From contig NZ_ARWA01000001.1 in NCBI RefSeq assembly GCF_000385335.1, forward strand, positions 3,364,001 through 3,428,000: a stretch of 64,000 bases of DNA, read 5' to 3'. Below are positions 20,587-43,494 of this stretch, piece after piece. The translations under genes were made by a program, and so were the position numbers. The notes beneath the pieces were generated by a model. It made no database searches, was not told where the DNA came from, and worked only from the letters and a program-made list of their open reading frames with translations. The DNA is from Methyloferula stellata AR4. Its GTDB lineage: Bacteria > Pseudomonadota > Alphaproteobacteria > Rhizobiales > Beijerinckiaceae. Positions within the stretch are counted from its first letter, which is position 1; every line of letters starts with the position of its first letter.

Positions 20587-23500
20587 TCAGGCAGCAGCCT
20601 TTACGGGTTCTTTCTGGATTGCTTTTTCAACCGCCTTCGGCTCAGCCGGAGAGCCGACCCATTCCGAATTGGCCGGAATGTGCTCGCCCTTCATGACGAG
20701 GGTCAGAGGTCCGAGCCGCGCATAATCGCCGACATGCGTGTCGTAAAGAACGGTCGAGCCCGCGCCGACCGCCACGCCCTTGCCGACATGGATACGGCCG
20801 ACCTTCATCACCCGGTCCTCGTAAAGATGCGTCTGCAGGGCGCACATGGAGTTCAGCGCCGCATAATCGCCGACGGTCACGCAATCGAACTCGGTGATGT
20901 CGGTCATGTCCATATAGACGCCGCGGCCGAATTTGGCACCGAAAACCCGCAAGATCCAAGGCAGGAACGGGGTGCCGCGCAGATGGTCGAGCAGCACGCG
21001 CCCGACCATGCCGGCATAGATCACCGCGACCGCCTCGGTCCGCATCGCCCACCAGGACCACATGGGCTTCGTCATCGGCTCATAGCGGCCCATGGTCAGC
21101 CATTTGATCGCAACGACCACCGCCGTCAGGCCGAGCGTGATCGCCACAGCCGAGATGATGAAAAGCTTCGCAACCTCGGCATAGTGGCCCTCAATCACGG
21201 CCCGGCTGAACCATTCGACCGCCCAGGTGCCGAACGTAATGAAGAGCATGGTCGGCATCGATATTGTGATCGCCTCGAAACCAGCTCTTGCGAATTTCTT
21301 CCAGCGTGGCGCCTCATAGGTCCAATTGGCATTGCCCGTATCGAATCTTTGCCGCACGGGCAGCTTGATCGGCGGCGAGCCGAACCACGTATCTCCGGGG
21401 CTCATCAATTCATTCGCCGGTGGCTTCGACTTGATGCCGATCAGCGCATTATTGGGGATTTCGGCGCCGGCCGGCACGACGGCGCTGTTGCCGACGAAGA
21501 CCCGCGAGCCGGTCTTCACATGTTTCAGATACATCCAGCCGCGGCGGATCTCCTCGTCGCCGAGCACGACCTCGTCGGCGATGAAACATTTCTCGCCGAT
21601 CTCGACAAGGTCGTAGCGGCCGGACAGATTGGTGGAAATCTCCGCGTCCTTGCCGATCTTGGCGCCCATCAGCCGGTACCAGCCCTGCATATAGATGGTC
21701 GCAAAGAGCGAGGAGAGTGTTTCGAGCGTGATTTCGGACGCGAGCGCAACCGACCATTTGCGGAAATAGAACCAGGAATGGATCGAATAGGTGCCTTCCT
21801 TCACGCTCGGCAAAACGATCCAGCGGAACAGGATGATAAAGCCGACCGTGGCGAGCACGGTGACAAAAGCCGTCGGCCAGGCCATGACCGGGATCATGGC
21901 CATGTAGAGCCCCCGGTCGACATCGGCGATGCCGATCAGATCGTCGATCTTGTCGAAGACCCAGAAGGCTGGAATGATCGGCAAAAGCCCAAGCGGCGGA
22001 ATGACGAGAAGCATGAGCGTATAAAGCGCATTCATCACAGTGCGACGCAGCGGCGACGCCGTGGCCTGCGGATCAAGCGCGGCCTGATCGACAATGCCGA
22101 CTTTGGTTCCCGGCGATCCGTCCCAAACCTCCCAGGCGCCAACATGCGTATTGGCGCCGATCGACGTCAGGTCGCGCAATTCGGCGCCCTCGTCCAGGAC
22201 GACGTTTTCTTCGATCACGCAGGACGAGCCTATATAGGCGTCCCGGCCGATCGTAATCTCGCCGATGATGAGTTCATTGCCTTCGACCCGCGCATTGGCG
22301 AAAGTCGCGAAGGAGCCGATATTGGCGCCATCGCCGATGCTGATCAGGTCAAAGGCACCCGCCTCGATTTCGGCGAGAAGTGTATCCTTGCCGATCTTCG
22401 CGCCGACCACCTTCATGTAAAGCGGCAAAAGCGGCGTGCCGTGAAACCATCTGGTGTGGACCAGTCCTAAAAAGCGCTTGGACAGCCACCAGCGGTAATA
22501 ATAAACGCCCCAAAGCGGATAGCGGCCCGGTTTGGTCCGGCCGATGATTGCCCATTTGGCGGCAATCGCAATCACCAGAATCGCGATATTGATCGAGATA
22601 TAAACGCCGAGCAGCGAGGCCACTTCCTCGAAGATCGACGCATCCGTATCCGTGAGCAGCATATAGCTCACGAAAACCCCGAGCCATTCCGCCGTCACGA
22701 GCCCGAGAATGATCGGCAGCACGATCAATTGCGCGAGGCCGCAGAGGAAATGCCGCAGAAACGGCGGCGGCGTGAAGGACAGATCGCGCGGCGGCCCGAT
22801 ATCGCCCGATTTTTTGTCGAGCAGGTCCGCGAGCAAGCGCAAGGAGCGCGCCGTATAGACGTCCTGCAACGTAATGCCTGCGAGCGCCGGCGTTTCGCGC
22901 ACGATCGAGATGAGACGCGCGGCGAGCAGCGAATGACCGCCAAGATCGGTGAAGAAATCCGCATCGAACGGGATGGCTTGCGGCGGCAAGACACGCTGCG
23001 CCGCGGCAAGCAGCTTGGCTTCGGTTTCGGTGCGGGGATCTTCCTGGACTTCGTTGCTCCCAACGGAGTGCAGCTCGACCTTCTTCAGGAAATTGCGGTC
23101 GACCTTGCCCGACGGCAGCCGCGGCAGGCTGTCCACCGGCTCATACCGGTTCGGCAGCATATAGGCCGGCAAATGGGCGCGCAGAAGATTGCGCATGGTG
23201 GCGGGATCGAGTGCGGCCCCCGCGACGGCGACGACGAAGGCCACGAGTTCTTCGACGCCCGCTTCGCCTCTTTGGACGACGGCGGCTTGCGAAATCTGCG
23301 GCAGATCGGTGAGCTTGGCTTCGATCTCCCCGAGCTCCACGCGAAAGCCGCGCACTTTGACCTGATCGTCGATCCGGCCGCGAAAGATGAGGTTGCCCTG
23401 CGGATCGATGAGAACGGCATCGCCCGACCGGTAAAGCCGTCCGTCCGAAGCCGTCGCATCGAACGGGTTGGCGATGAATTTTTCCGCCGTCAGCGTCTCG

Positions 23501-24717
23501 CGGTTGAGATAGCCCGTAGCAATGCCGGGTCCGCCGATCAGGAGCTCACCCTCGATGCCTGCTCCGAGGAGCCGCAACTCGTCATCTGCCACATAGCAGG
23601 TGTAATTCGGGATCGGCTGTCCGATCGTGACCGGCTCATTCGGATGGACTTCCGAGATCGTCGCAACGACGGTCGCCTCGGTAGGCCCGTAGGAATTGAA
23701 GATGGTGCGCCCGGCCTTGCACCAGCGGGCACCGAGCGCGGGCGGACAGGCTTCGCCGCCCAAAATGATGATCCGCAAGGTTGCGACATCGCGCGGCAGA
23801 AGCGACAGCAGAGTCGGGACCGTGTCCAGCACGGTGACGCCATAGGCTTCGAGAAGATCCGGGAGCTTGTCGGCTTCCGCCATAATCTCCGGCGTCGCGA
23901 CGAAGAGGCTCGCCCCGACGAGATAGGGAAGCCAGATTTCTTCCATGGAGAGATCGAAGGCGACCGAGGCGCCCTGGAAAACGATATCGTTCTCGCTCAG
24001 CCGGTAGACTTCATTGGCGGCGCGCAAATAATGACAAATATTGCGGCTCGAAATGACGATGCCTTTCGGCATGCCGGTCGAGCCCGACGTATAGATGAGA
24101 TAGGCCGGGTGATCCGGCGTCGCGCCGAGCACGCGCGCATCGACCTTGGTGCGATCGGTCGGGTCGATGAGATCGGCCGGGATCACGATGGGGCAAGCAG
24201 CATGCGCGCGCGCGGTCTCGACGAAGGACGGTGCCGTCAGCAGCAGTGAGGCTTGTGCATCGGTAAGGCAGGTCGCGACGCGGTCGGCGGGCGCATCCGC
24301 GTCGAAGGGCAGCCAGGCGGCGCCTGTCTTGGCGATGCCGATCTGGGCGATCAGGAGATCCTGGCCGCGCGCCATCCAGAGGCCGACGACATGGCCGGGG
24401 CGTACACCGCGATGATAAAGGCCGCGCGCTATGGCTTCGGCCTGTGCCTCGACCTCTCCATAGGTGAGCCGAGCCTCGGGCGTGATCATGGCGACGGCTT
24501 GCGGATCGGCGCGGACGGTGGCGGCGAAGATTTCGGACAAGAGCTCGTCGCGGATCAGGTGCGGACGAACCGGACCGCGCAGACCAGCCTTCGCCGCGGG
24601 ACTCTCCGACGCCACAGAAGCTAATGTCACGCCTTCGTCTTTGACCGTCTGGTACAGAGCCATATCGCTTTCGAGGTCGGCCAACGCGTGCGGCGGGTGA
24701 AAACTCGGAACCCTCAT
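20587..24717 (-). CDS. single-module NRPS of Pls (poly-amino-acid synthetase) architecture
   Basis: 1376-residue membrane-bound synthetase. Residues 60-545 are an amino-acid adenylation domain with YTSGSTGMPKG (209-219), FDLSMEEIW (254-262), NSYGPTEATV (341-350), GRIDDQVKVRGFRVELGEIE and PSGKVDR. Residues 560-635 are a carrier domain with phosphopantetheine Ser596 in DLGGHSL. The rest is three tandem units, each a membrane helix pair followed by a hexapeptide-type domain: about 652-880, 890-1120 and 1145-1365, each with a GAKIGK/GAKFGR motif. This A-T-(TM-C)x3 layout is that of epsilon-poly-lysine synthetase and the TIGR02353 terminal domain. Motif alignment suggests D-L-E at code positions 235/236/239; the substrate is not predictable. 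No condensation or thioesterase domain is present. Confidence 0.9.
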   Translation of the reverse strand: MRVPSFHPPHALADLESDMALYQTVKDEGVTLASVASESPAAKAGLRGPVRPHLIRDELLSEIFAATVRADPQAVAMITPEARLTYGEVEAQAEAIARGLYHRGVRPGHVVGLWMARGQDLLIAQIGIAKTGAAWLPFDADAPADRVATCLTDAQASLLLTAPSFVETARAHAACPIVIPADLIDPTDRTKVDARVLGATPDHPAYLIYTSGSTGMPKGIVISSRNICHYLRAANEVYRLSENDIVFQGASVAFDLSMEEIWLPYLVGASLFVATPEIMAEADKLPDLLEAYGVTVLDTVPTLLSLLPRDVATLRIIILGGEACPPALGARWCKAGRTIFNSYGPTEATVVATISEVHPNEPVTIGQPIPNYTCYVADDELRLLGAGIEGELLIGGPGIATGYLNRETLTAEKFIANPFDATASDGRLYRSGDAVLIDPQGNLIFRGRIDDQVKVRGFRVELGEIEAKLTDLPQISQAAVVQRGEAGVEELVAFVVAVAGAALDPATMRNLLRAHLPAYMLPNRYEPVDSLPRLPSGKVDRNFLKKVELHSVGSNEVQEDPRTETEAKLLAAAQRVLPPQAIPFDADFFTDLGGHSLLAARLISIVRETPALAGITLQDVYTARSLRLLADLLDKKSGDIGPPRDLSFTPPPFLRHFLCGLAQLIVLPIILGLVTAEWLGVFVSYMLLTDTDASIFEEVASLLGVYISINIAILVIAIAAKWAIIGRTKPGRYPLWGVYYYRWWLSKRFLGLVHTRWFHGTPLLPLYMKVVGAKIGKDTLLAEIEAGAFDLISIGDGANIGSFATFANARVEGNELIIGEITIGRDAYIGSSCVIEENVVLDEGAELRDLTSIGANTHVGAWEVWDGSPGTKVGIVDQAALDPQATASPLRRTVMNALYTLMLLVIPPLGLLPIIPAFWVFDKIDDLIGIADVDRGLYMAMIPVMAWPTAFVTVLATVGFIILFRWIVLPSVKEGTYSIHSWFYFRKWSVALASEITLETLSSLFATIYMQGWYRLMGAKIGKDAEISTNLSGRYDLVEIGEKCFIADEVVLGDEEIRRGWMYLKHVKTGSRVFVGNSAVVPAGAEIPNNALIGIKSKPPANELMSPGDTWFGSPPIKLPVRQRFDTGNANWTYEAPRWKKFARAGFEAITISMPTMLFITFGTWAVEWFSRAVIEGHYAEVAKLFIISAVAITLGLTAVVVAIKWLTMGRYEPMTKPMWSWWAMRTEAVAVIYAGMVGRVLLDHLRGTPFLPWILRVFGAKFGRGVYMDMTDITEFDCVTVGDYAALNSMCALQTHLYEDRVMKVGRIHVGKGVAVGAGSTVLYDTHVGDYARLGPLTLVMKGEHIPANSEWVGSPAEPKAVEKAIQKEPVKAAA

Positions 24718-35182: not shown

Positions 35183-35196
35183 TTGATATTGATCAA
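35183..35196. promoter_or_regulatory. perfect FNR/FixK box upstream of alpha/beta hydrolase
   Basis: TTGATATTGATCAA matches TTGAT-N4-ATCAA exactly. Its centre at 35189.5 predicts a start of transcription near 35231, about 28 bases before the hydrolase ATG, typical of class II FNR/FixK activation under oxygen limitation. Confidence 0.75.
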
Positions 35197-35258
35197 TGTG
35201 GACACCCAAGCCATGTCCACTATGGCGCACGGGGGCCTTGCCAATTGGGCGGTGCCAT

Positions 35259-35933
35259 ATGTCGAACGGACCTGAAATCAGCGTTCGTCAAGTCCAAATC
35301 CCACCTCTTGGACTTGACGGTACTTTGCGGCTGCCTCTCCACCCTATCGGCGTGGTTCTATTTGCGCATGGAAGCGGCTCCAGCCGTTTCAGCCCGCGCA
35401 ACGTGGCCGTCGCCTCCGTATTGAATGATGCCGGTTTTGCAACGATTTTGCTTGACCTCCTGGCTCCAGAGGAAGAGGGCAATCGCGGCAACGTATTCGA
35501 CATATCCTTGCTGGCGGACCGATTGATCGATGCGATCAAGTGGATCGACCGCGATCCTGAACTCTCCAAACTGCCACTCGGCCTATTTGGCGCGAGCACC
35601 GGCGCGGGGGCAGCGCTCGTGGCGGCGTCCCGGGTCGGCGACAGGATAAGCGCCGTCGTTTCCCGCAGCGGCCGTCCGGATCTGGCCGGTTCCGCTCTGC
35701 GCAAAGTGCGCGCGCCGACATTGCTGATCGTGGGAGGTCACGATGATGCGGTCATCGATCTCAACCAGCAGGCTTTGGCGCAGCTAAAATCACCAAAGGT
35801 GCTGAGCATCGTGCCAGGTGCCACGCATCTTTTTTCTGAACATGGCGCGCTCGAAGCCGTCAGCAAATTGGCGAGCAAATGGTTTTCCGTGCATCTTCGC
35901 CAGCTTGCCGTCGCGGGCAGCATCGTCCTTTAA
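35259..35933 (+). CDS. alpha/beta hydrolase (dienelactone hydrolase-like)
   Basis: 224-residue cytosolic hydrolase. The oxyanion strand is VLFAHGSGSSRFSPRN, the nucleophile elbow GLFGASTGAGAAL has Ser, the acid lies in VGGHDDAVI and the His in GATHLFSE. This matches the DLH-type hydrolases that neighbour stress genes in Rhizobiales. ATG 35259 is chosen; a longer frame to 35196 would overlap the FNR box. Substrate unknown. Confidence 0.88.
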   Translation: MSNGPEISVRQVQIPPLGLDGTLRLPLHPIGVVLFAHGSGSSRFSPRNVAVASVLNDAGFATILLDLLAPEEEGNRGNVFDISLLADRLIDAIKWIDRDPELSKLPLGLFGASTGAGAALVAASRVGDRISAVVSRSGRPDLAGSALRKVRAPTLLIVGGHDDAVIDLNQQALAQLKSPKVLSIVPGATHLFSEHGALEAVSKLASKWFSVHLRQLAVAGSIVL

Positions 35934-38359: not shown

Positions 38360-38617
38360 TCAGAGCTGCGGCCGGCTCGCAGCCGCCGCTTCGATCAGCG
38401 CGACCCAATCGCCGATGGAGCGCAGGGCATCGATTTCGCGGCTGCGAAAGCGGACGTCGAAACGCTCCTCGACGGCGAGCACCAGCATGACCATTTTCGC
38501 CGAGTCCCAGCCGGCAATGTCGCCTGCGGTGGTCTTCATTGTCAGGACGAGTTTTTCGTCGTCGAAATTTTCGCGGAAGATTTCCGTCAGCGCGGCGAGA
38601 AGGTCAGGCTGCGTCAT
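38360..38617 (-). CDS. acyl carrier protein (first of two)
   Basis: 85-residue carrier protein with four helices; phosphopantetheine Ser39 is in GWDSAKMVML. It lies outside the primary fatty-acid synthesis locus and diverges from AcpP, indicating a dedicated pathway. Its ATG overlaps the stop of the upstream 39471-38614 gene (ATGA), so the two are translationally coupled. A second carrier is encoded at 40605-40889. Confidence 0.85.
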   Translation of the reverse strand: MTQPDLLAALTEIFRENFDDEKLVLTMKTTAGDIAGWDSAKMVMLVLAVEERFDVRFRSREIDALRSIGDWVALIEAAAASRPQL

Positions 38618-39471
38618 GCGCGAGCCTGCCCGGCGAGGCTGAGGGCTTTGCGGCATAGAATGAGCCAATATGCTTCTGAAAAATCCGCTGCCGTCTTGAG
38701 GTTGGCGAACCGATCGATATAGGCGTGCATCAAGCCTTCTTTCTCCAGTTCGATTGTGCCCGCAGGCTTGCCCGGCTCCTCGAGCGTTACCCATAGTAGC
38801 CGATTCGGACCGAAGCTCCGCATGAGGGCATATAATTGCTCGACGTCCGATCGCGACGCGATATCGGACTTATGAACAAAAATCCGTTCCGCGTCTTCAA
38901 GATCGTCGAACAGCTTGCGCGCCAGAAAATCGAGCCTTTTTGCGTGAGTGATTTTCAACTCGTCGAACGTCTTGCCGAGGGCCAAGTTGCCGCCGTGAAA
39001 GCGAATGCCCAATAGCGGGACGATCACCGTCAATTGCGGCGAACCATATTCAATCGGCCCATCGAACTGAAGGAGGACATTCTCGGCCTTGCGCAGCTCG
39101 ACCAGCCGCGATTGCAAGGCCCGAATGAGTTTGGCAGCGGAAGCGTCCGAGAACCGGAACAGATCGAGAGGCTCCGCCAGATATTTATGTTGAAGCAGTC
39201 CGAATTCGCAATTGTTGCCGAGACTGTGAAATTTTGCGAGCACGTCCTTACAGAAGGCCTTGCGTGCCTGCTTCAAAGACTGCGGCTCGAAGGTCCTGTG
39301 CCGGAGATAATGGACAAGCGCCGCGATGCCTGTCTCAGGCGCATTCAAATAGCGATCGAGATAGGCCGCGGCATCGATCCGCGCGCCGCCAAGCGCATCG
39401 CTGCGCCCGGTTTGGATGGCTGCCATGTCGCCGTCAGACGTTTTCAGCGACCGAGCTATGTTGAAATTCAT
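38614..39471 (-). CDS. SLGxxC-motif protein, DUF1796-like
   Basis: 285-residue soluble protein. FHSLGNNCEFGLLQHKYLAE followed by PLDLFRFSD recalls the Ser-Leu-Gly-x-x-Cys and PFDW motifs of DUF1796, a putative papain-like peptidase family that occurs in cell-surface biosynthesis loci; homology beyond the motif is uncertain. The start is ATG 39471; a longer frame to 39618 runs into the desaturase gene. It is coupled to the ACP gene downstream. Confidence 0.65.
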   Translation of the reverse strand: MNFNIARSLKTSDGDMAAIQTGRSDALGGARIDAAAYLDRYLNAPETGIAALVHYLRHRTFEPQSLKQARKAFCKDVLAKFHSLGNNCEFGLLQHKYLAEPLDLFRFSDASAAKLIRALQSRLVELRKAENVLLQFDGPIEYGSPQLTVIVPLLGIRFHGGNLALGKTFDELKITHAKRLDFLARKLFDDLEDAERIFVHKSDIASRSDVEQLYALMRSFGPNRLLWVTLEEPGKPAGTIELEKEGLMHAYIDRFANLKTAADFSEAYWLILCRKALSLAGQARA

Positions 39472-39497
39472 GAACGAGCCCGCTCTTGCGGCGTCCG

Positions 39498-40457
39498 TCA
39501 GGTCCCCGGCCTTCGCTCGGAGATGATTTTTGTCTCCTGCGGCAGCTTGATATCCCAGACGAGACCCAAAATCCCCAGGCTTCGGATAAACCAGAAGCCG
39601 GGGTCGAGTTCGTGCCACCTTAGCCCAAAAGCCGCCGAATTGGAAAATGCATGGTGATTATTGTGATGTGCCTCGCCCCAGGTGACAAACCCCAGCCAGA
39701 CATTGTTCCGGCTTTGATCGCCGCGGGCGAAGGCCTTGGTACCGACCAGATGACACAATGAATTGATCGCCGACATCGTCTGCTCGACGACGAAGATGCG
39801 GACAACCCCGCCCCAGAGAAAGCCGGTCAAGGCGCCCTGCCAGCGCCACTGGACAAGCCCACCGATGAGCGCCGGAAGTGCCAGCCCGAACGCCACCCAA
39901 AAATAATAAGAGCGGTTCAACCGCATCAGATCGCGGTTGCGCAGAAGATCGGGAACGTAGCGCGCGACATTTGGATAATCGTGGCGGATCATCCAAGTCA
40001 GATGCGCATGGATAAAACCGCGCATGCGGCCGGACAGAGTCTCGCCATGCAGATTGGGCGAATGCATATCGCCGTCGCGATCGGACAGCTCATGGTGACG
40101 GCGATGCATGGCGACCCAGGAGATCATCGGGCCGCGGGCCGCCATCAGTCCTAAGACCAGGAGTAGATAGGCAACCGGCCGCGCCGCCGTAAAGGCCCGA
40201 TGCGAAAAATAGCGATGATAGCCAACCGTCAGACCAAGCCCGGTCGCAAGCCAGAACACCGAAAACAAAACAATGTCGGTAACATGCAGAGGCAGCCAGC
40301 GAAGCGAGACGAAGGCGGCCAATGTGCCCAAGGCGGGGAGCACATCGAACAGAATGAAGTGACGCAATTGGATGCGATGAAACGCGGCGCTCGAAAAAAC
40401 CGTGCGCGCCGGGCGTTGCGGTTGCGAAGCATCAAGAATGGTCGTGGCTTGATTCAT
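39498..40457 (-). CDS. membrane fatty-acid desaturase (acyl-CoA/acyl-ACP type)
   Basis: 319-residue integral-membrane di-iron desaturase. The three His boxes are HRYFSH (81-86), HRRHH (118-122) and HHNNHH (264-269), between four hydrophobic helices, as in stearoyl-CoA delta-9 desaturases. It shares the strand with the SLGxxC gene (gap 26 bases) and the first ACP. Divergent from the second ACP and FAAL genes, from which it is separated by about 150 bases. Substrate form (CoA or ACP) and position of the double bond are unknown. Confidence 0.9.
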   Translation of the reverse strand: MNQATTILDASQPQRPARTVFSSAAFHRIQLRHFILFDVLPALGTLAAFVSLRWLPLHVTDIVLFSVFWLATGLGLTVGYHRYFSHRAFTAARPVAYLLLVLGLMAARGPMISWVAMHRRHHELSDRDGDMHSPNLHGETLSGRMRGFIHAHLTWMIRHDYPNVARYVPDLLRNRDLMRLNRSYYFWVAFGLALPALIGGLVQWRWQGALTGFLWGGVVRIFVVEQTMSAINSLCHLVGTKAFARGDQSRNNVWLGFVTWGEAHHNNHHAFSNSAAFGLRWHELDPGFWFIRSLGILGLVWDIKLPQETKIISERRPGT

Positions 40458-40604
40458 AGCTCAAGCATGGCAGCGGACAACGGCGAAGACAACAAGCCGT
40501 CAAGCCGAGTTTGGCCGAAATGAACCAAAATCTTCCGTGGCACTTGCAAGGCGGAAGGCTGCTGTATTACTGCAACTACGACCTCGATCGAACAGAGTGA
40601 AAAC

Positions 40605-40889
40605 TTGCCCGAGTTTACGTCCCCATCCGAATTTGATACCGATGCCGTAACGACATATTGTATCAACTTCGTCGCCGAGATGCTTGAGCGGGCTCCTGCC
40701 GATATCGATCCCAACGCGAAATTCAGCCGCATCGGTTTTGATTCAGCAATGTCCGTTCAATTGGTCGTGGCGCTCGAAGAACTTCTCAACATCGAGCTCA
40801 GCCCCGATTTGATCGACAGCTTTCCGACCATCGCAAGCCTGTCGGCGCATCTTGCAAAAGTTCGGGCGCAATTGCCGAAAGACTCGTAG
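40605..40889 (+). CDS. acyl carrier protein (second of two)
   Basis: 94-residue carrier protein; Ser47 in IGFDSAMSVQL is the phosphopantetheine site. No ATG fits; TTG 40605 is the best start. It sits eleven bases before the fatty acyl-AMP ligase gene, the usual arrangement for a FAAL and its cognate ACP, so it probably receives the activated fatty acid. Confidence 0.87.
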   Translation: MPEFTSPSEFDTDAVTTYCINFVAEMLERAPADIDPNAKFSRIGFDSAMSVQLVVALEELLNIELSPDLIDSFPTIASLSAHLAKVRAQLPKDS

Positions 40890-40900
40890 TCACGATAGGC

Positions 40901-42622
40901 ATGTCACATCCTGCTCCGCACACAATGATCGAGCTGTTGGAGATGCGTGCCGCATTGGCACCATCCGACATTGCTCTGAGGTTTCTCTCGGATCGCGGCA
41001 AGGTCGAAGCGGAACTGAGTTTCGCATCGCTGCGCGCGCGTGCAATGGCCGTTGCCGAAGATCTCGTCGCGCGCGGAGCCAAGCCTTGCGATCGCGCCAT
41101 CCTCGCCTTCCCGCCCGGCCTTGAATTTCTCATTGCCTGGTTCGGCTGTCTTTATGCAAACGTGATCGCCGTGCCGATGATGCCGCCGCGCCGCGCCAGC
41201 GCGCGGGATTCGAGCGAGAACATCATCGGCGACTGCAAACCGCGCTTTGGCTTCACGAGTCAGTCCTTCGTGATCCGCGACGAGATGATCGCCCGCTTTG
41301 CGGAATACGCAATCGATTGGATCTTGCTCGACATAGACACCACGCATGAGCCCGTGGGCAACAAACTGCCCGCGCCGGCGCCAGGCGACATCGCCTTCCT
41401 GCAATATACGTCCGGCTCGACCGCCTCGCCGAAAGGCGTGATGGTGTCTCACGCCGATCTCATCGCCAATCTCGATATGATCCGGATCGGCTTCGGCAAT
41501 GGCCCGCAATCGACCTATGTGAGCTGGGTCCCGCTCTTTCACGACATGGGGCTGATCCTGAATGTGCTGGAGGCGATCTATATAGGCGCGCCTTGCGTTC
41601 TGGTTTCGCCGGTCTCGTTTCTGCAGCGCCCGCTCGTATGGCTTCGCGCGATTTCCGACTTCAAGGCCGAAGTCGCGGGCGGTCCCAATTTCGCTTTCGA
41701 TCATTGCGTTTCGCGGTTTCAGGCAAAGCAGATGGAAGGCGTCGATCTGTCGTCCTGGAAAGTCGCGATCAATGCCGCCGAGCCGGTCCGCGCCGGCACT
41801 TTGCAGCGTTTCACCGAGACATTCGCGCCTTACGGGTTCGACGCGCATGCCTTTTATCCCTGCTACGGCATGGCCGAGGCGACCGTCTGGATGACGGGCG
41901 GCACGCGCTGGCAGGACGTAAAGATCAAGAAGGTGAGCAAGGCCGGCCTGCAAGGCTTGAAGATCGGTGCTCCGGTGGATGATGCCGATGCGCAATCCGT
42001 CGTCGGGTGCGGCCTCGCGGGCATCGGGTCGAAGATCGCCATTGTCGATCCCGAAACCATGGCGCGGCTGCCCGCAGGCCGTATCGGCGAAATCTGGGGC
42101 CGCGGCCCGCATATAGCGCAAGGCTATTGGGAAAAGCCGGAAGCGACCAGCGAGACCTTCGGTGCGATGATTTCAGACGAGACCGAAGGTCCTTGGCTGC
42201 GCACCGGCGATCTCGGCTTCCTCGATGAGGACGGCGAAATTTATATCGCTGGCCGCATCAAAGACATCATCATCATTCGCGGCCGGAATTATTATCCGCA
42301 GGACATAGAGCATACGGTCCAATTGACCGATGAAGCCTTACGGCCGGGGTTCGGCGCGGCCTTCACCATCATCGCCGCGGACGAGCAGGAAAAGCTCGTC
42401 ATCGTCCAGGAAGTCGAACGGACCCAGCGTCATCGGGCGGATCTGCCGGACATCGCCGGGAATGTCCGCGAGGCCGTGGCCGAGGCGCATGATCTTGCGG
42501 TTCACTGCATCATTCTCGTTCCGCCCGGCGTGGTGCCGAAGACAACGAGCGGCAAAATTCAGCGCCGTCTGACGCGGCAGCTCTGGCAGGACGGCGCGCT
42601 CGACATCCTGCATCAACTGTAG
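40901..42622 (+). CDS. fatty acyl-AMP ligase (FAAL, FadD32-like)
   Basis: 573-residue adenylating enzyme that activates a fatty acid and transfers it to a carrier protein instead of CoA. Motifs: QYTSGSTASPKGVMVSH (P-loop, 168-184), PLFHDMGL (211-218), PNFAFDHC (262-269), and GRIKDIIIIRGRNYYPQDIE; the catalytic Lys lies in TSGKIQRRL near residue 555. These match FAALs better than acyl-CoA synthetases. The gene overlaps the convergent WcbI-like gene by ten bases. Pairing with the ACP just upstream is expected. Confidence 0.9.
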   Translation: MSHPAPHTMIELLEMRAALAPSDIALRFLSDRGKVEAELSFASLRARAMAVAEDLVARGAKPCDRAILAFPPGLEFLIAWFGCLYANVIAVPMMPPRRASARDSSENIIGDCKPRFGFTSQSFVIRDEMIARFAEYAIDWILLDIDTTHEPVGNKLPAPAPGDIAFLQYTSGSTASPKGVMVSHADLIANLDMIRIGFGNGPQSTYVSWVPLFHDMGLILNVLEAIYIGAPCVLVSPVSFLQRPLVWLRAISDFKAEVAGGPNFAFDHCVSRFQAKQMEGVDLSSWKVAINAAEPVRAGTLQRFTETFAPYGFDAHAFYPCYGMAEATVWMTGGTRWQDVKIKKVSKAGLQGLKIGAPVDDADAQSVVGCGLAGIGSKIAIVDPETMARLPAGRIGEIWGRGPHIAQGYWEKPEATSETFGAMISDETEGPWLRTGDLGFLDEDGEIYIAGRIKDIIIIRGRNYYPQDIEHTVQLTDEALRPGFGAAFTIIAADEQEKLVIVQEVERTQRHRADLPDIAGNVREAVAEAHDLAVHCIILVPPGVVPKTTSGKIQRRLTRQLWQDGALDILHQL

Positions 42623-43494
42623 CGCGCGATATAGGCGCGCACGTAGGTCTCGAAATCCATGACCTGCCCATGGACCTGATAGGTGCGGTCCGCGGTCACC
42701 CATGTCATGCCAAGCGTCTCCGCGATCTTCGGATGAACCGGCGATTGGATCACCTGCAGCTCGTCGAGCTCCGGCATCGGCTGTCGGACGACATCGATCT
42801 TCGAAACGGCGAGCACATAGTCGAGCAGCATCGCCAGCAAGGATCCGCAGGGACGGTTGACCGTATAGAACAATTGGCTCTCGCGGAACCCGTCGAGAAT
42901 GGTCTTGCCGATGACCGTGCCAAAGCGCGCATCCAAAGCCTCGAGCCGCCTCGCTTCGAAATCCAGAATGCGCTCCGGCCGGATGAGGCCTGGAACGTCG
43001 AGCTGCCTATAGGCCTCGAACCGCGCCTGCGGGTCTGGAACGAGCTTGCGCAATTTGCCGAGCGCACCATCGTAATAGGTCGTCGTATGCACCGACGGAT
43101 CGTCGAGGCTGCGCGCATGCGCGTCGCGCAATCCGTTGAAATCGTCATAGGGCCAAGGCGCGGCAAACCAGATGACCGGGAAGCGGATGATATTCGCAGA
43201 CGCCGGGATCGCATCGCGCAGCGTGTAATCTTCGAAATTCTTGACGTCCTGTACGAGGAGATCGTCGCATTGCGCGAGCTCTTCCGCCGCCGCTGCGCGA
43301 TCTGCCTCCGGCACATCGAAGAAATGATAGAAGGACCGAATCTCAGCCCCCGGCGCCACGCGGCTGAAGGCGCGATGCAAAAGCTCCGCCTGGCAATTGC
43401 CGATGAAGCCGATGGTACGGCGTCCGTCTTTCTGCGCGGCGACAGGCCGATCGGCCGAAGACGCCTCGTTTGTCCTGCTACTCGATTGGTCCAT
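42613..43494 (-). CDS. WcbI-like polysaccharide biosynthesis protein
   Basis: 293-residue soluble protein. IGFIGNCQAELLHRAF at residues 28-43 carries the GNCQ motif of WcbI, a putative acetyltransferase of capsule synthesis that binds CoA. The later DDFNG, HTTTYYDGALGKL and RESQLFYTVNRPCGSL segments are family-typical. Overlap with the FAAL gene end argues for a linked history. It could transfer an acyl group to a glycan or lipid; activity is inferred. Confidence 0.8.
   Translation of the reverse strand: MDQSSSRTNEASSADRPVAAQKDGRRTIGFIGNCQAELLHRAFSRVAPGAEIRSFYHFFDVPEADRAAAAEELAQCDDLLVQDVKNFEDYTLRDAIPASANIIRFPVIWFAAPWPYDDFNGLRDAHARSLDDPSVHTTTYYDGALGKLRKLVPDPQARFEAYRQLDVPGLIRPERILDFEARRLEALDARFGTVIGKTILDGFRESQLFYTVNRPCGSLLAMLLDYVLAVSKIDVVRQPMPELDELQVIQSPVHPKIAETLGMTWVTADRTYQVHGQVMDFETYVRAYIARYS

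What the first reader, a model, noticed from the sequence alone, without database searches (positions are those of the whole stretch)
38360..43494. FAAL, two carrier proteins, membrane desaturase, SLGxxC protein and WcbI-like protein in one cluster
A fatty acyl-AMP ligase sits next to one ACP, while a desaturase is coupled in a divergent operon to an SLGxxC-motif protein and a second ACP; a WcbI-like protein overlaps the ligase. FAAL/desaturase/ACP trios (as in JamABC-type terminal-alkyne pathways) load and modify an acyl chain on a carrier. Here no PKS or NRPS module follows, so the acyl group may be transferred to a glycan or lipid, with WcbI-like or SLGxxC proteins as transferases. The set is not a described pathway to my knowledge.
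Basis: partly seen in the sequence, partly recalled or inferred. Interest (0 to 1): 0.7.

Follow-up and report, generated by a model that had tools for sequence, protein, structure and literature searches.

The report
Two-carrier fatty acyl transfer gene cluster
A bacterium carries six neighbouring genes that probably load a fatty acid onto a carrier protein, desaturate it and hand it to another molecule; relatives of these genes, found elsewhere in smaller sets, suggest that the poorly understood capsule enzyme family WcbI works with carrier proteins.

Summary
Two divergent gene runs, desaturase-SLGxxC-ACP1 (minus) and ACP2-FAAL (plus), lie beside a convergent WcbI-family gene. All six were found together only here and in one sister species, but subsets recur. 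(1) FAAL, ACP2 and WcbI form a unit in seven genomes of three genera of the family; their FAALs group together (90/94). (2) The closest desaturases sit near an ACP and a FAAL in Thalassospira, Pseudonocardia, Rhodococcus, Polaromonas and Tistrella. (3) SLGxxC proteins sit within 6 kb of ACP1-class carriers (22 of 79 loci) and FkbH-like proteins (16 of 79). The two carriers belong to different classes by profile score, so cassettes have been merged. Eight of 15 WcbI-bearing genomes examined have a carrier gene near WcbI, three as ligase/ACP/WcbI runs. WcbI was crystallised with CoA, was inactive alone and was said to need a partner; an acyl-ACP donor is my inference. Best reading: FAAL loads ACP2, the desaturase acts on the carrier-bound chain, WcbI and perhaps SLGxxC transfer acyl groups to a glycan or lipid hydroxyl. 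Acceptor, substrates and SLGxxC function are not shown. The FAAL/desaturase/ACP trio is a known kind (JamABC); the polyyne cassette is not met.

The parts
38360..38617 (-). ACP1: carrier protein of the class linked elsewhere to SLGxxC, FkbH-like and WcbI proteins; attachment motif GWDS
   Evidence: PP-binding 1.8e-4; 92 bits to an HMM of 16 SLG-linked ACPs built without window or sister, against 34 for the genome's AcpP
38614..39471 (-). SLGxxC protein (285 aa), distant DUF1796-like; invariant F81, S83, G85, C88, E89, G91, Q94, R106 in 60 rows
   Evidence: alignment A2; DUF1796 in 2 of 60 members at E<=1, best 0.0079; AlphaFold2 mean pLDDT 81, Rossmann-like (my reading) from residue 79
39498..40457 (-). 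Membrane fatty acid desaturase with three His boxes (HRYFSH, HRRHH, HNNHH)
   Evidence: FA_desaturase 4.9e-16; SCD1 4ymk 1.8e-25; closest relatives 49-53% in clusters with ACP and FAAL
40458..40604 (.). 147-bp intergenic region between the two divergent runs, presumed promoter region
   Evidence: sequence; no sigma-70-like site found by the simple scan
40605..40889 (+). ACP2: carrier protein of the class linked to FAAL and desaturase (JamC-like); motif GFDS
   Evidence: PP-binding 2.2e-15; 74 bits to an HMM of seven ACPs from desaturase/FAAL or WcbI/FAAL loci, AcpP 29, ACP1 13
40901..42622 (+). Fatty acyl-AMP ligase (FAAL)
   Evidence: AMP-binding 2.7e-64; PDB relatives 7r7e, 3kxw, FadD32 and others; FAAL-type insertion; groups with six other WcbI-linked FAALs, 90/94
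42613..43494 (-). WcbI-family protein; invariant Cys34 in GNCQ; the near-invariant His of the HP motif is Arg here
   Evidence: WcbI 3.7e-29; a profile of 14 family members finds the B. pseudomallei capsule protein 4bqn/4bqo at 7.7e-10; motif columns

Best explanation
The cluster makes and delivers an unsaturated acyl group. The FAAL adenylates a free fatty acid and loads it on ACP2 (known chemistry of the family; loading here inferred). The membrane desaturase introduces a double bond, or a triple bond as in JamB, into the ACP-bound chain (inferred from JamABC-like linkage). The WcbI-family protein binds the phosphopantetheine arm of an acyl-ACP as it binds CoA in the crystal, and passes the acyl group to a hydroxyl of a surface glycan or glycolipid (inferred). 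SLGxxC with ACP1 forms a second carrier/transfer pair, drawn from a cassette in which FkbH-like or FAAL-type enzymes charge the carrier (inferred). Shown: gene content, FAAL type by sequence, two carrier classes, conservation in the sister species, independent recurrence of each sub-cassette. Inferred: substrates, acceptor, transfer by WcbI and SLGxxC.
For: Six-gene locus kept in the sister species. FAAL-ACP2-WcbI unit in G000, G001, G026, G862, G899, G927, G940 (in G001 split over two contigs that share the FAAL); their FAALs are one group, 90/94 (not a starred branch), 0 of 500 shuffles as low, while none of the 11 other FAAL loci fetched has a WcbI. Carrier classes. Of 15 genomes with a WcbI, 8 have an ACP in the fetched stretch, including ligase/ACP/WcbI runs in G442, G496 and G545 whose ligases carry the FAAL-type insertion; about 0.02 ACP per 12 kb would be expected from the 7 PP-binding stretches in this 4.2-Mb genome. 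Niveispirillum run FkbH-like, ACP, WcbI, SDR. Proteins with WcbI, TPR and SLGxxC parts. SLGxxC loci: ACP class 22, FkbH 16, WcbI 7, FAAL 4 of 79. Glycan context: glycosyltransferases around ligase-SLGxxC-ACP in Acidiphilium and an SLGxxC/GT61/methyltransferase protein; glycosyltransferase and ABC-2 genes in g11. PMC4104973 (passages read): WcbI binds CoA, Cys14 adduct, no activity alone, partner proposed.
Against: No glycosyltransferase or export gene was seen next to the window cluster (35-46 kb). The desaturase and the SLGxxC/ACP1 pair are joined to the unit only in this genus. Seven of 15 WcbI genomes show no ACP in the fetched stretch. In the window and its sister the otherwise near-invariant His of the WcbI HP motif is Arg, so this copy may have altered or lost activity. 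Most SLGxxC loci (53 of 79) have none of the partners within 6 kb, though 50 of 79 have cut flanks; with full flanks it is ACP 9, FkbH 6, FAAL 3, WcbI 1 of 29. In g11 a PKS accompanies the unit, so WcbI might act on another substrate there. The HMM of SLG-linked ACPs was built from SLG neighbours, so the 22 of 79 count is partly circular; the window ACP1 alone finds 17 of 79 at any distance within the loci. The SLGxxC fold gave no enzyme match that I could use.
Confidence: 0.45

Rival explanations
1. The cluster makes a modified (olefinic or alkynyl) acyl-ACP2 starter, JamABC-style, for a synthase encoded elsewhere in the genome; WcbI and SLGxxC only help or tailor.
For: FAAL, desaturase and ACP meet the domain criterion used for alkyne cassettes; the genome has a 2627-aa PKS-like ORF at about 2.71 Mb and an AMP-binding/PP-binding/hexapeptide protein at window 20587-24717; two of four g11 loci hold a type I PKS by Pfam, and the Polaromonas cluster has ketosynthase/PKS genes.
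Against: Neither synthase is near the cluster; of a polyyne-type cluster only FAAL, one desaturase and ACP have a counterpart in the window.
Confidence: 0.2
2. Acyl-ACP made here feeds membrane lipid or hopanoid remodelling; SLGxxC and WcbI are binding or assembly factors, not transferases.
For: SLGxxC has no enzyme family match, its fold match is weak (2g6t, Z 7.1), and WcbI of B. pseudomallei showed no transferase activity alone.
Against: Recurrent runs of ACP with WcbI or SLGxxC and a putative carrier-charging enzyme.
Confidence: 0.2
3. Two unrelated neighbouring functions: a FAAL-ACP2-WcbI unit and a desaturase-SLGxxC-ACP1 operon that merely lie side by side.
For: The two halves recur separately and are divergently transcribed.
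Against: The desaturases nearest in the tree (Rhodococcus, Pseudonocardia, Thalassospira) lie with a FAAL and a JamC-class ACP, and SLGxxC recurs with FAAL-type ligases (Acidiphilium, Methylocystis) and in one protein with WcbI, so the halves are cross-linked.
Confidence: 0.12

Closest known systems
JamABC alkyne cassette (PMC8406139, passages read; FAAL review PMC11837247, passages read)
   Same: Stand-alone FAAL, membrane desaturase and an ACP at one locus
   Different: No PKS/NRPS follows; a second ACP of another class, WcbI and SLGxxC are added; the product is unknown
Bacterial polyyne cassette (jamABC, two more desaturases, thioesterase, rubredoxin; PMC8406139)
   Same: FAAL, desaturase and ACP without a PKS
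   Different: No second or third desaturase, no rubredoxin, hydrolase or P450 match in the 64-kb window, while the same queries find all but the P450 and the TE-family protein in G585
Desaturase-ACP-methyltransferase-P450-hydrolase-FAAL clusters of Thalassospira marina and Pseudonocardia alni plasmids
   Same: Closest desaturases (about 50%) with an ACP and FAAL
   Different: They hold P450, methyltransferase and hydrolase genes and no WcbI or SLGxxC match
WcbI of Burkholderia pseudomallei (PDB 4bqn/4bqo; PMC4104973, passages read)
   Same: Family match and the conserved Cys after the first strand
   Different: Linked here to a FAAL and ACPs; Arg in place of the conserved His
Mycobacterial acyltrehalose pathways (FAAL, PKS and acyltransferases; recalled, only the listing of PMC4183827 seen)
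   Same: FAAL-started acyl chains end up on a sugar
   Different: They go through a PKS and other acyltransferase families; no WcbI or SLGxxC that I know of
FkbH-ACP loading pairs (glyceryl-ACP chemistry recalled, not tested)
   Same: ACP1 is of the class that follows FkbH-like genes beside SLGxxC or WcbI
   Different: No FkbH at this locus; the single FkbH match of the genome lies far away
BtrH, ACP:aminoglycoside acyltransferase with a papain-like domain (PMC10318531, passages read)
   Same: A precedent for acyl transfer from an ACP to a sugar-type acceptor by an enzyme of a Cys-peptidase-like fold
   Different: The SLGxxC model looks Rossmann-like to me, not papain-like

Membership tests
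FAAL | AMP-binding protein whose solved relatives are FAALs | tested here: met
   the three best chains are named 'Polyketide synthase', the next ones include FadD32, FadD23, 3pbk fatty acyl-adenylate ligase and FadD28
FAAL | FAAL-specific insertion, absent in acyl-CoA ligases | tested here: met
   87 residues in the region after YGMAE, against 64, 67 and 51 in three own-genome AMP-binding proteins; the fourth (L005, 81) aligns unclearly. The place of the insertion is recalled, not measured on a solved FAAL
FAAL | Transfers acyl to holo-ACP rather than CoA | not testable with these tools
   Needs an enzyme assay
JamABC-type alkyne cassette | FAAL, fatty acid desaturase and ACP at one locus (domain criterion of PMC8406139) | tested here: met
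JamABC-type alkyne cassette | Desaturase/acetylenase activity on acyl-ACP | not testable with these tools
   Needs an assay
Polyyne cassette | Two further desaturases at the locus | tested here: not met
   Three Streptomyces desaturases as queries find only 39498-40457 in the window, but three desaturase ORFs in the control G585
Polyyne cassette | Rubredoxin gene at the locus | tested here: not met
   No match in the window; control G585 9.4e-23; no paired CxxC motif
Polyyne cassette | Thioesterase gene at the locus | tested here: inconclusive
   No match to the Streptomyces hydrolase or TE-family protein, but another alpha/beta hydrolase lies at 35196-35933
WcbI family (PF18588) | Profile match above cut-off | tested here: met
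   102.3 bits, cut-off 29.2; 4bqn/4bqo found by the profile
WcbI family (PF18588) | Conserved Cys and conserved His of the HP motif | tested here: inconclusive
   Cys34 kept in 23 of 23 rows; His is Arg in window and sister, His in the other 21 of 23
DUF1796 (putative papain-like) | Pfam profile match | tested here: inconclusive
   No match for the window protein; 2 of 60 rows at E<=1 (best 0.0079)
FkbH-ACP-SLGxxC cassette | FkbH-like gene beside the ACP | tested here: not met
   The single FkbH match of the genome is at 203976-204935
ACP class of that cassette | Profile score well above housekeeping AcpP | tested here: met
   ACP1 92 bits, AcpP 34

The most novel reading that the evidence does not exclude
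WcbI-family proteins, and separately the SLGxxC family, are carrier-protein-dependent acyltransferases for surface glycans: dedicated ACPs charged by FAAL-type ligases or FkbH-like enzymes are the donors, and the missing partner of WcbI is an acyl-ACP rather than acetyl-CoA plus an unknown protein. The window cluster is a two-carrier form that adds a desaturase, so that the transferred chain is unsaturated.
Probability: 0.35. Interest if true: 0.72.

Novelty: new variant of a known kind. Interest (0 to 1): 0.58.

Why it matters
WcbI was solved in 2013 as a CoA-binding protein of new fold without detectable activity, and its authors proposed an unidentified partner (PMC4104973, passages). Recurrent ligase/ACP/WcbI and FkbH/ACP/WcbI runs in several lineages offer a concrete candidate, an acyl-ACP, that can be tested in vitro with proteins of harmless bacteria. 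If right, it would define a route by which bacteria put fatty or hydroxy acids on surface glycans from carrier proteins, give a functional lead for the SLGxxC family, and show how a JamABC-type acyl-modifying cassette can be used without a polyketide synthase.

Tried and rejected
SLGxxC and WcbI as one superfamily (both have a Cys after a first strand): profile-profile comparison gives probability 0.1%; no support on sequence. SLGxxC as a papain-like peptidase: DUF1796 is matched by only 2 of 60 rows, and the model's best solved match is 2g6t, an uncharacterised protein (Foldseek E 4.1e-4; VIA Z 7.1, 174 residues, rmsd 4.8), within the range that the tool calls a common arrangement; I recognised no papain-like chain in the rows shown, which does not exclude one. 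PDB sequence searches with SLGxxC found nothing useful.

Polyyne pathway: set aside on desaturase number and rubredoxin, with a control. In the desaturase tree the third Streptomyces desaturase is a very long branch on the window's side of the starred branch, its place unsure; the other two fall on the far side. A shared sigma-70 promoter between the divergent runs: none found by a simple scan. A synthase partner in trans: the PKS-like ORF at 2.71 Mb sits with ORFs that look Rieske-dioxygenase-like and SDR-like from their first residues only; no link found. The genome's FkbH has no match to any of the six proteins in 19.5 kb around it.

Wider distribution: SLGxxC matched in 3 of 60 relatives (the third, G035, has six matches at 26-34% identity) and 1 of 289 class genomes; among the 79 named loci only the sister has the desaturase. 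The window-type WcbI was found in 3 of 385 class genomes. Literature, all from listings unless said: DUF1796 0 papers; FkbH + acyl carrier protein + glycosyltransferase + glyceryl + polysaccharide 0 papers; five of six terms on FAAL, ACP, polysaccharide, acyltransferase, desaturase, glycolipid 31 papers, 12 listed; FAAL + capsular polysaccharide 5 papers, one on mycobacterial acyltrehaloses; WcbI 11 papers, of which only PMC4104973 has it in title or abstract. 'Not described' rests on these searches of an open-access library alone.


Full report
The locus. The window is bases 3364001-3428000 of a one-contig, 4.24-Mb genome, G000. The six genes of the finding are real. On the minus strand run the desaturase (39498-40457), the SLGxxC protein (38614-39471) and ACP1 (38360-38617), the last two overlapping by 4 bp. 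On the plus strand run ACP2 (40605-40889) and the FAAL (40901-42622). The WcbI-like gene (42613-43494, minus) converges on the FAAL with a 10-bp overlap. The flanking genes on the left (GCV_T/CAF17-like, amidohydrolase, alpha/beta hydrolase) look unrelated. Both ACPs keep a DS attachment motif; the desaturase keeps three His boxes (sequence).

Conservation. A sister species, G001, whose contig C161 matches the MAG contig JAATEW010000383 in length and content, has ACP1, SLGxxC, desaturase, ACP2 and FAAL in the same order, the contig ending inside the FAAL; a second contig starts inside the FAAL and continues into WcbI. Protein identities are 82-92%. SLGxxC is otherwise rare near home: 3 of 60 relatives and 1 of 289 class genomes.

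The ligase is FAAL-type. Its solved relatives include FadD32, FadD23, FadD28 and 3pbk. In the region after the YGMAE motif it has 87 residues, as other FAAL-type proteins do, against 64, 67 and 51 in three own-genome AMP-binding proteins; a fourth, with 81, aligns unclearly. The insertion is the accepted FAAL mark (PMC11837247, passages); its exact place is recalled. Activity was not tested.

Two carrier classes. An HMM of 16 ACPs found beside SLGxxC genes elsewhere (window and sister left out) scores ACP1 at 92 bits, the genome's AcpP at 34 and ACP2 at 25. An HMM of seven ACPs from desaturase/FAAL or FAAL/WcbI loci scores ACP2 at 74 bits, AcpP at 29 and ACP1 at 13. The cluster therefore joins two carrier systems.

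Cassette one, desaturase-ACP-FAAL. The desaturase's closest relatives found are on plasmids: Rhodococcus opacus 53%, Pseudonocardia alni 50.5%, Thalassospira marina 49.8%, Polaromonas 48.8% and Tistrella 43% (13 records at E<=1e-25). In Thalassospira, Pseudonocardia and Polaromonas an annotated ACP follows the desaturase and a FAAL lies in the same cluster; in Rhodococcus and Tistrella the same genes were found by search. In the tree the window sits with Rhodococcus, Pseudonocardia and Thalassospira on one side of a 96/98 branch; the first two desaturases of a Streptomyces polyyne-type cluster lie on the other side, the third is a very long branch of unsure place, and 5 of 13 inner forks are open. 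The trio meets the published alkyne-cassette criterion; [quoted passage not shown] Nine proteins of the Streptomyces cluster as queries find in the 64-kb window only the FAAL (and, weakly, the protein at 20587), the one desaturase and ACP2; as a control they find FAAL, three desaturases, ACP, hydrolase and rubredoxin in G585. So the polyyne cassette is not met.

Cassette two, FAAL-ACP2-WcbI. In G026 of the same family a WcbI gene is divergent from a FAAL followed by an ACP2-class ACP. A family-wide FAAL search (28 of 199 genomes at E<=1e-130) then gave four genomes of genus g11 with the same unit. I fetched the context of 13 of those 28 genomes (with G000): 7 have the unit, 6 do not. The seven WcbI-linked FAALs form one group, 90/94, not a starred branch, none of 500 shuffles as low. 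None of the 11 other FAAL loci, five of them outside the family, has a WcbI. Around the g11 units lie, by Pfam, a type I PKS in L235 and L238, a GT4-type glycosyltransferase in L235, L237 and L238, ABC transporter genes in L237 and L238, a CDP-alcohol phosphatidyltransferase in L235 and L237, an aminotransferase and a sub-threshold Wzz match in L238; in L236 I saw none of these, though most of its genes were not scanned.

Cassette three, SLGxxC-ACP1. A named genome scan gave 79 SLGxxC loci (best 80 of 138 confirmed), mostly titled Acetobacteraceae or Rhodospirillales. Within 6 kb, 22 of 79 have an ACP of this class, 16 an FkbH-like protein, 14 both, 7 a WcbI, 4 a FAAL (sister included); 26 have at least one; of the 29 loci with full flanks the numbers are 9 (ACP), 6 (FkbH), 1 (WcbI) and 3 (FAAL). 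The ACP profile was trained on such neighbours; the window's ACP1 alone, as query, hits in 17 of 79 loci at any distance. FkbH_N was matched above its cut-off in three such proteins and below it in three more. Proteins with WcbI, TPR and SLGxxC parts occur (L060, L100). In Acidiphilium (L071) a FAAL-type ligase overlaps the SLGxxC gene beside an ACP, among glycosyltransferases; another SLGxxC protein (L125) carries GT61 and methyltransferase domains and overlaps an ACP gene. A Paracoccus plasmid has an SLGxxC gene between sulfotransferase genes beside a glycosyltransferase gene. The L052 ligase lacks the FAAL insertion.

WcbI and carriers in general. WcbI occurs in 8 of 60 relatives and 11 of 269 phylum genomes at E<=1e-10, 15 genomes in all. 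In the fetched stretches 8 of 15 have an ACP: G000, G001 (two contigs that share the FAAL), G026, G008, G442, G486, G496, G545; G016, G017, G019, G045, G452, G560 and G567 do not. Leaving out the three that led me here, it is 5 of 12. With 7 PP-binding stretches in this 4.2-Mb genome, about 0.02 per 12 kb would be expected; no random-gene control was run. G442, G496 and G545 have ligase, ACP and WcbI genes in one run on one strand, and the ligases fill the FAAL-type insertion. A Niveispirillum plasmid has FkbH-like (HAD-IIIC), ACP, WcbI and SDR genes in one run. A Leisingera plasmid WcbI has glycan genes and no ACP. PMC4104973 (passages) reports CoA binding, a Cys14 adduct, no activity alone and a proposed partner; the terms 'acyl carrier' and 'phosphopantetheine' do not occur in its main text. 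That acyl-ACP is the donor is my inference.

SLGxxC function. Invariant Cys88 and a conserved His159 (90% or more of 60 rows) suggest an active site. The model (mean pLDDT 81, residues 1-33 under 50) looks Rossmann-like to me, with Cys88 after the first strand of the domain; fold matches are weak. It is not detectably related to WcbI. A transferase role rests on neighbourhood alone.

Points against. The full set was found only in this genus; no glycan genes were seen beside it; the window's WcbI has Arg in place of the near-invariant His of its HP motif, so this copy may be changed or inactive; about half of the WcbI genomes show no carrier; most SLGxxC loci show no partner within reach. The acceptor is unknown.

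Verdict. A real, conserved cluster that merges a JamABC-like acyl-modifying cassette with two carrier-linked, probably glycan-directed modules: a new variant of a known kind. Its main value is the testable lead that WcbI-family proteins use acyl-ACPs.

Noticed in passing
window 20587-24717 (-): AMP-binding, AMP-binding_C, PP-binding and hexapeptide-repeat protein of 1376 aa (NRPS-like), followed by chorismate synthase and a ClC channel gene.
   Followed up: partly
G000:C1 about 2710058-2717941 (L250:10059-17942): PKS-like 2627-aa ORF with two carrier domains, no link to the window cluster found.
   Followed up: partly
L252:7344-9676 (G000:C1 about 3217 kb): Another small ACP, followed by ORFs that look acyl-CoA-dehydrogenase-like and amino-acid:carrier-ligase-like to me (untested).
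   Followed up: no
L168, L169 (Thalassospira marina, Pseudonocardia alni plasmids): Same gene order desaturase-ACP-methyltransferase-P450-hydrolase-FAAL in two phyla, product unknown to me.
   Followed up: partly
L120:3996-7284 (Methylocystis MAG): FAAL-type ligase, ACP and an AlgX-like SGNH acetyltransferase with TPRs in one run: a possible third kind of carrier-linked acyltransferase.
   Followed up: partly
L235, L237, L238 (genus g11): FAAL-ACP-WcbI near PKS, glycosyltransferase, ABC transporter and lipid-type genes: looks like an unusual glycolipid or capsule-lipid locus.
   Followed up: partly
L068, L097, L100, L125: Very long ORFs (1100-1370 aa) with SLGxxC matches; one adds GT61 and methyltransferase, one adds WcbI and TPRs.
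   Followed up: partly
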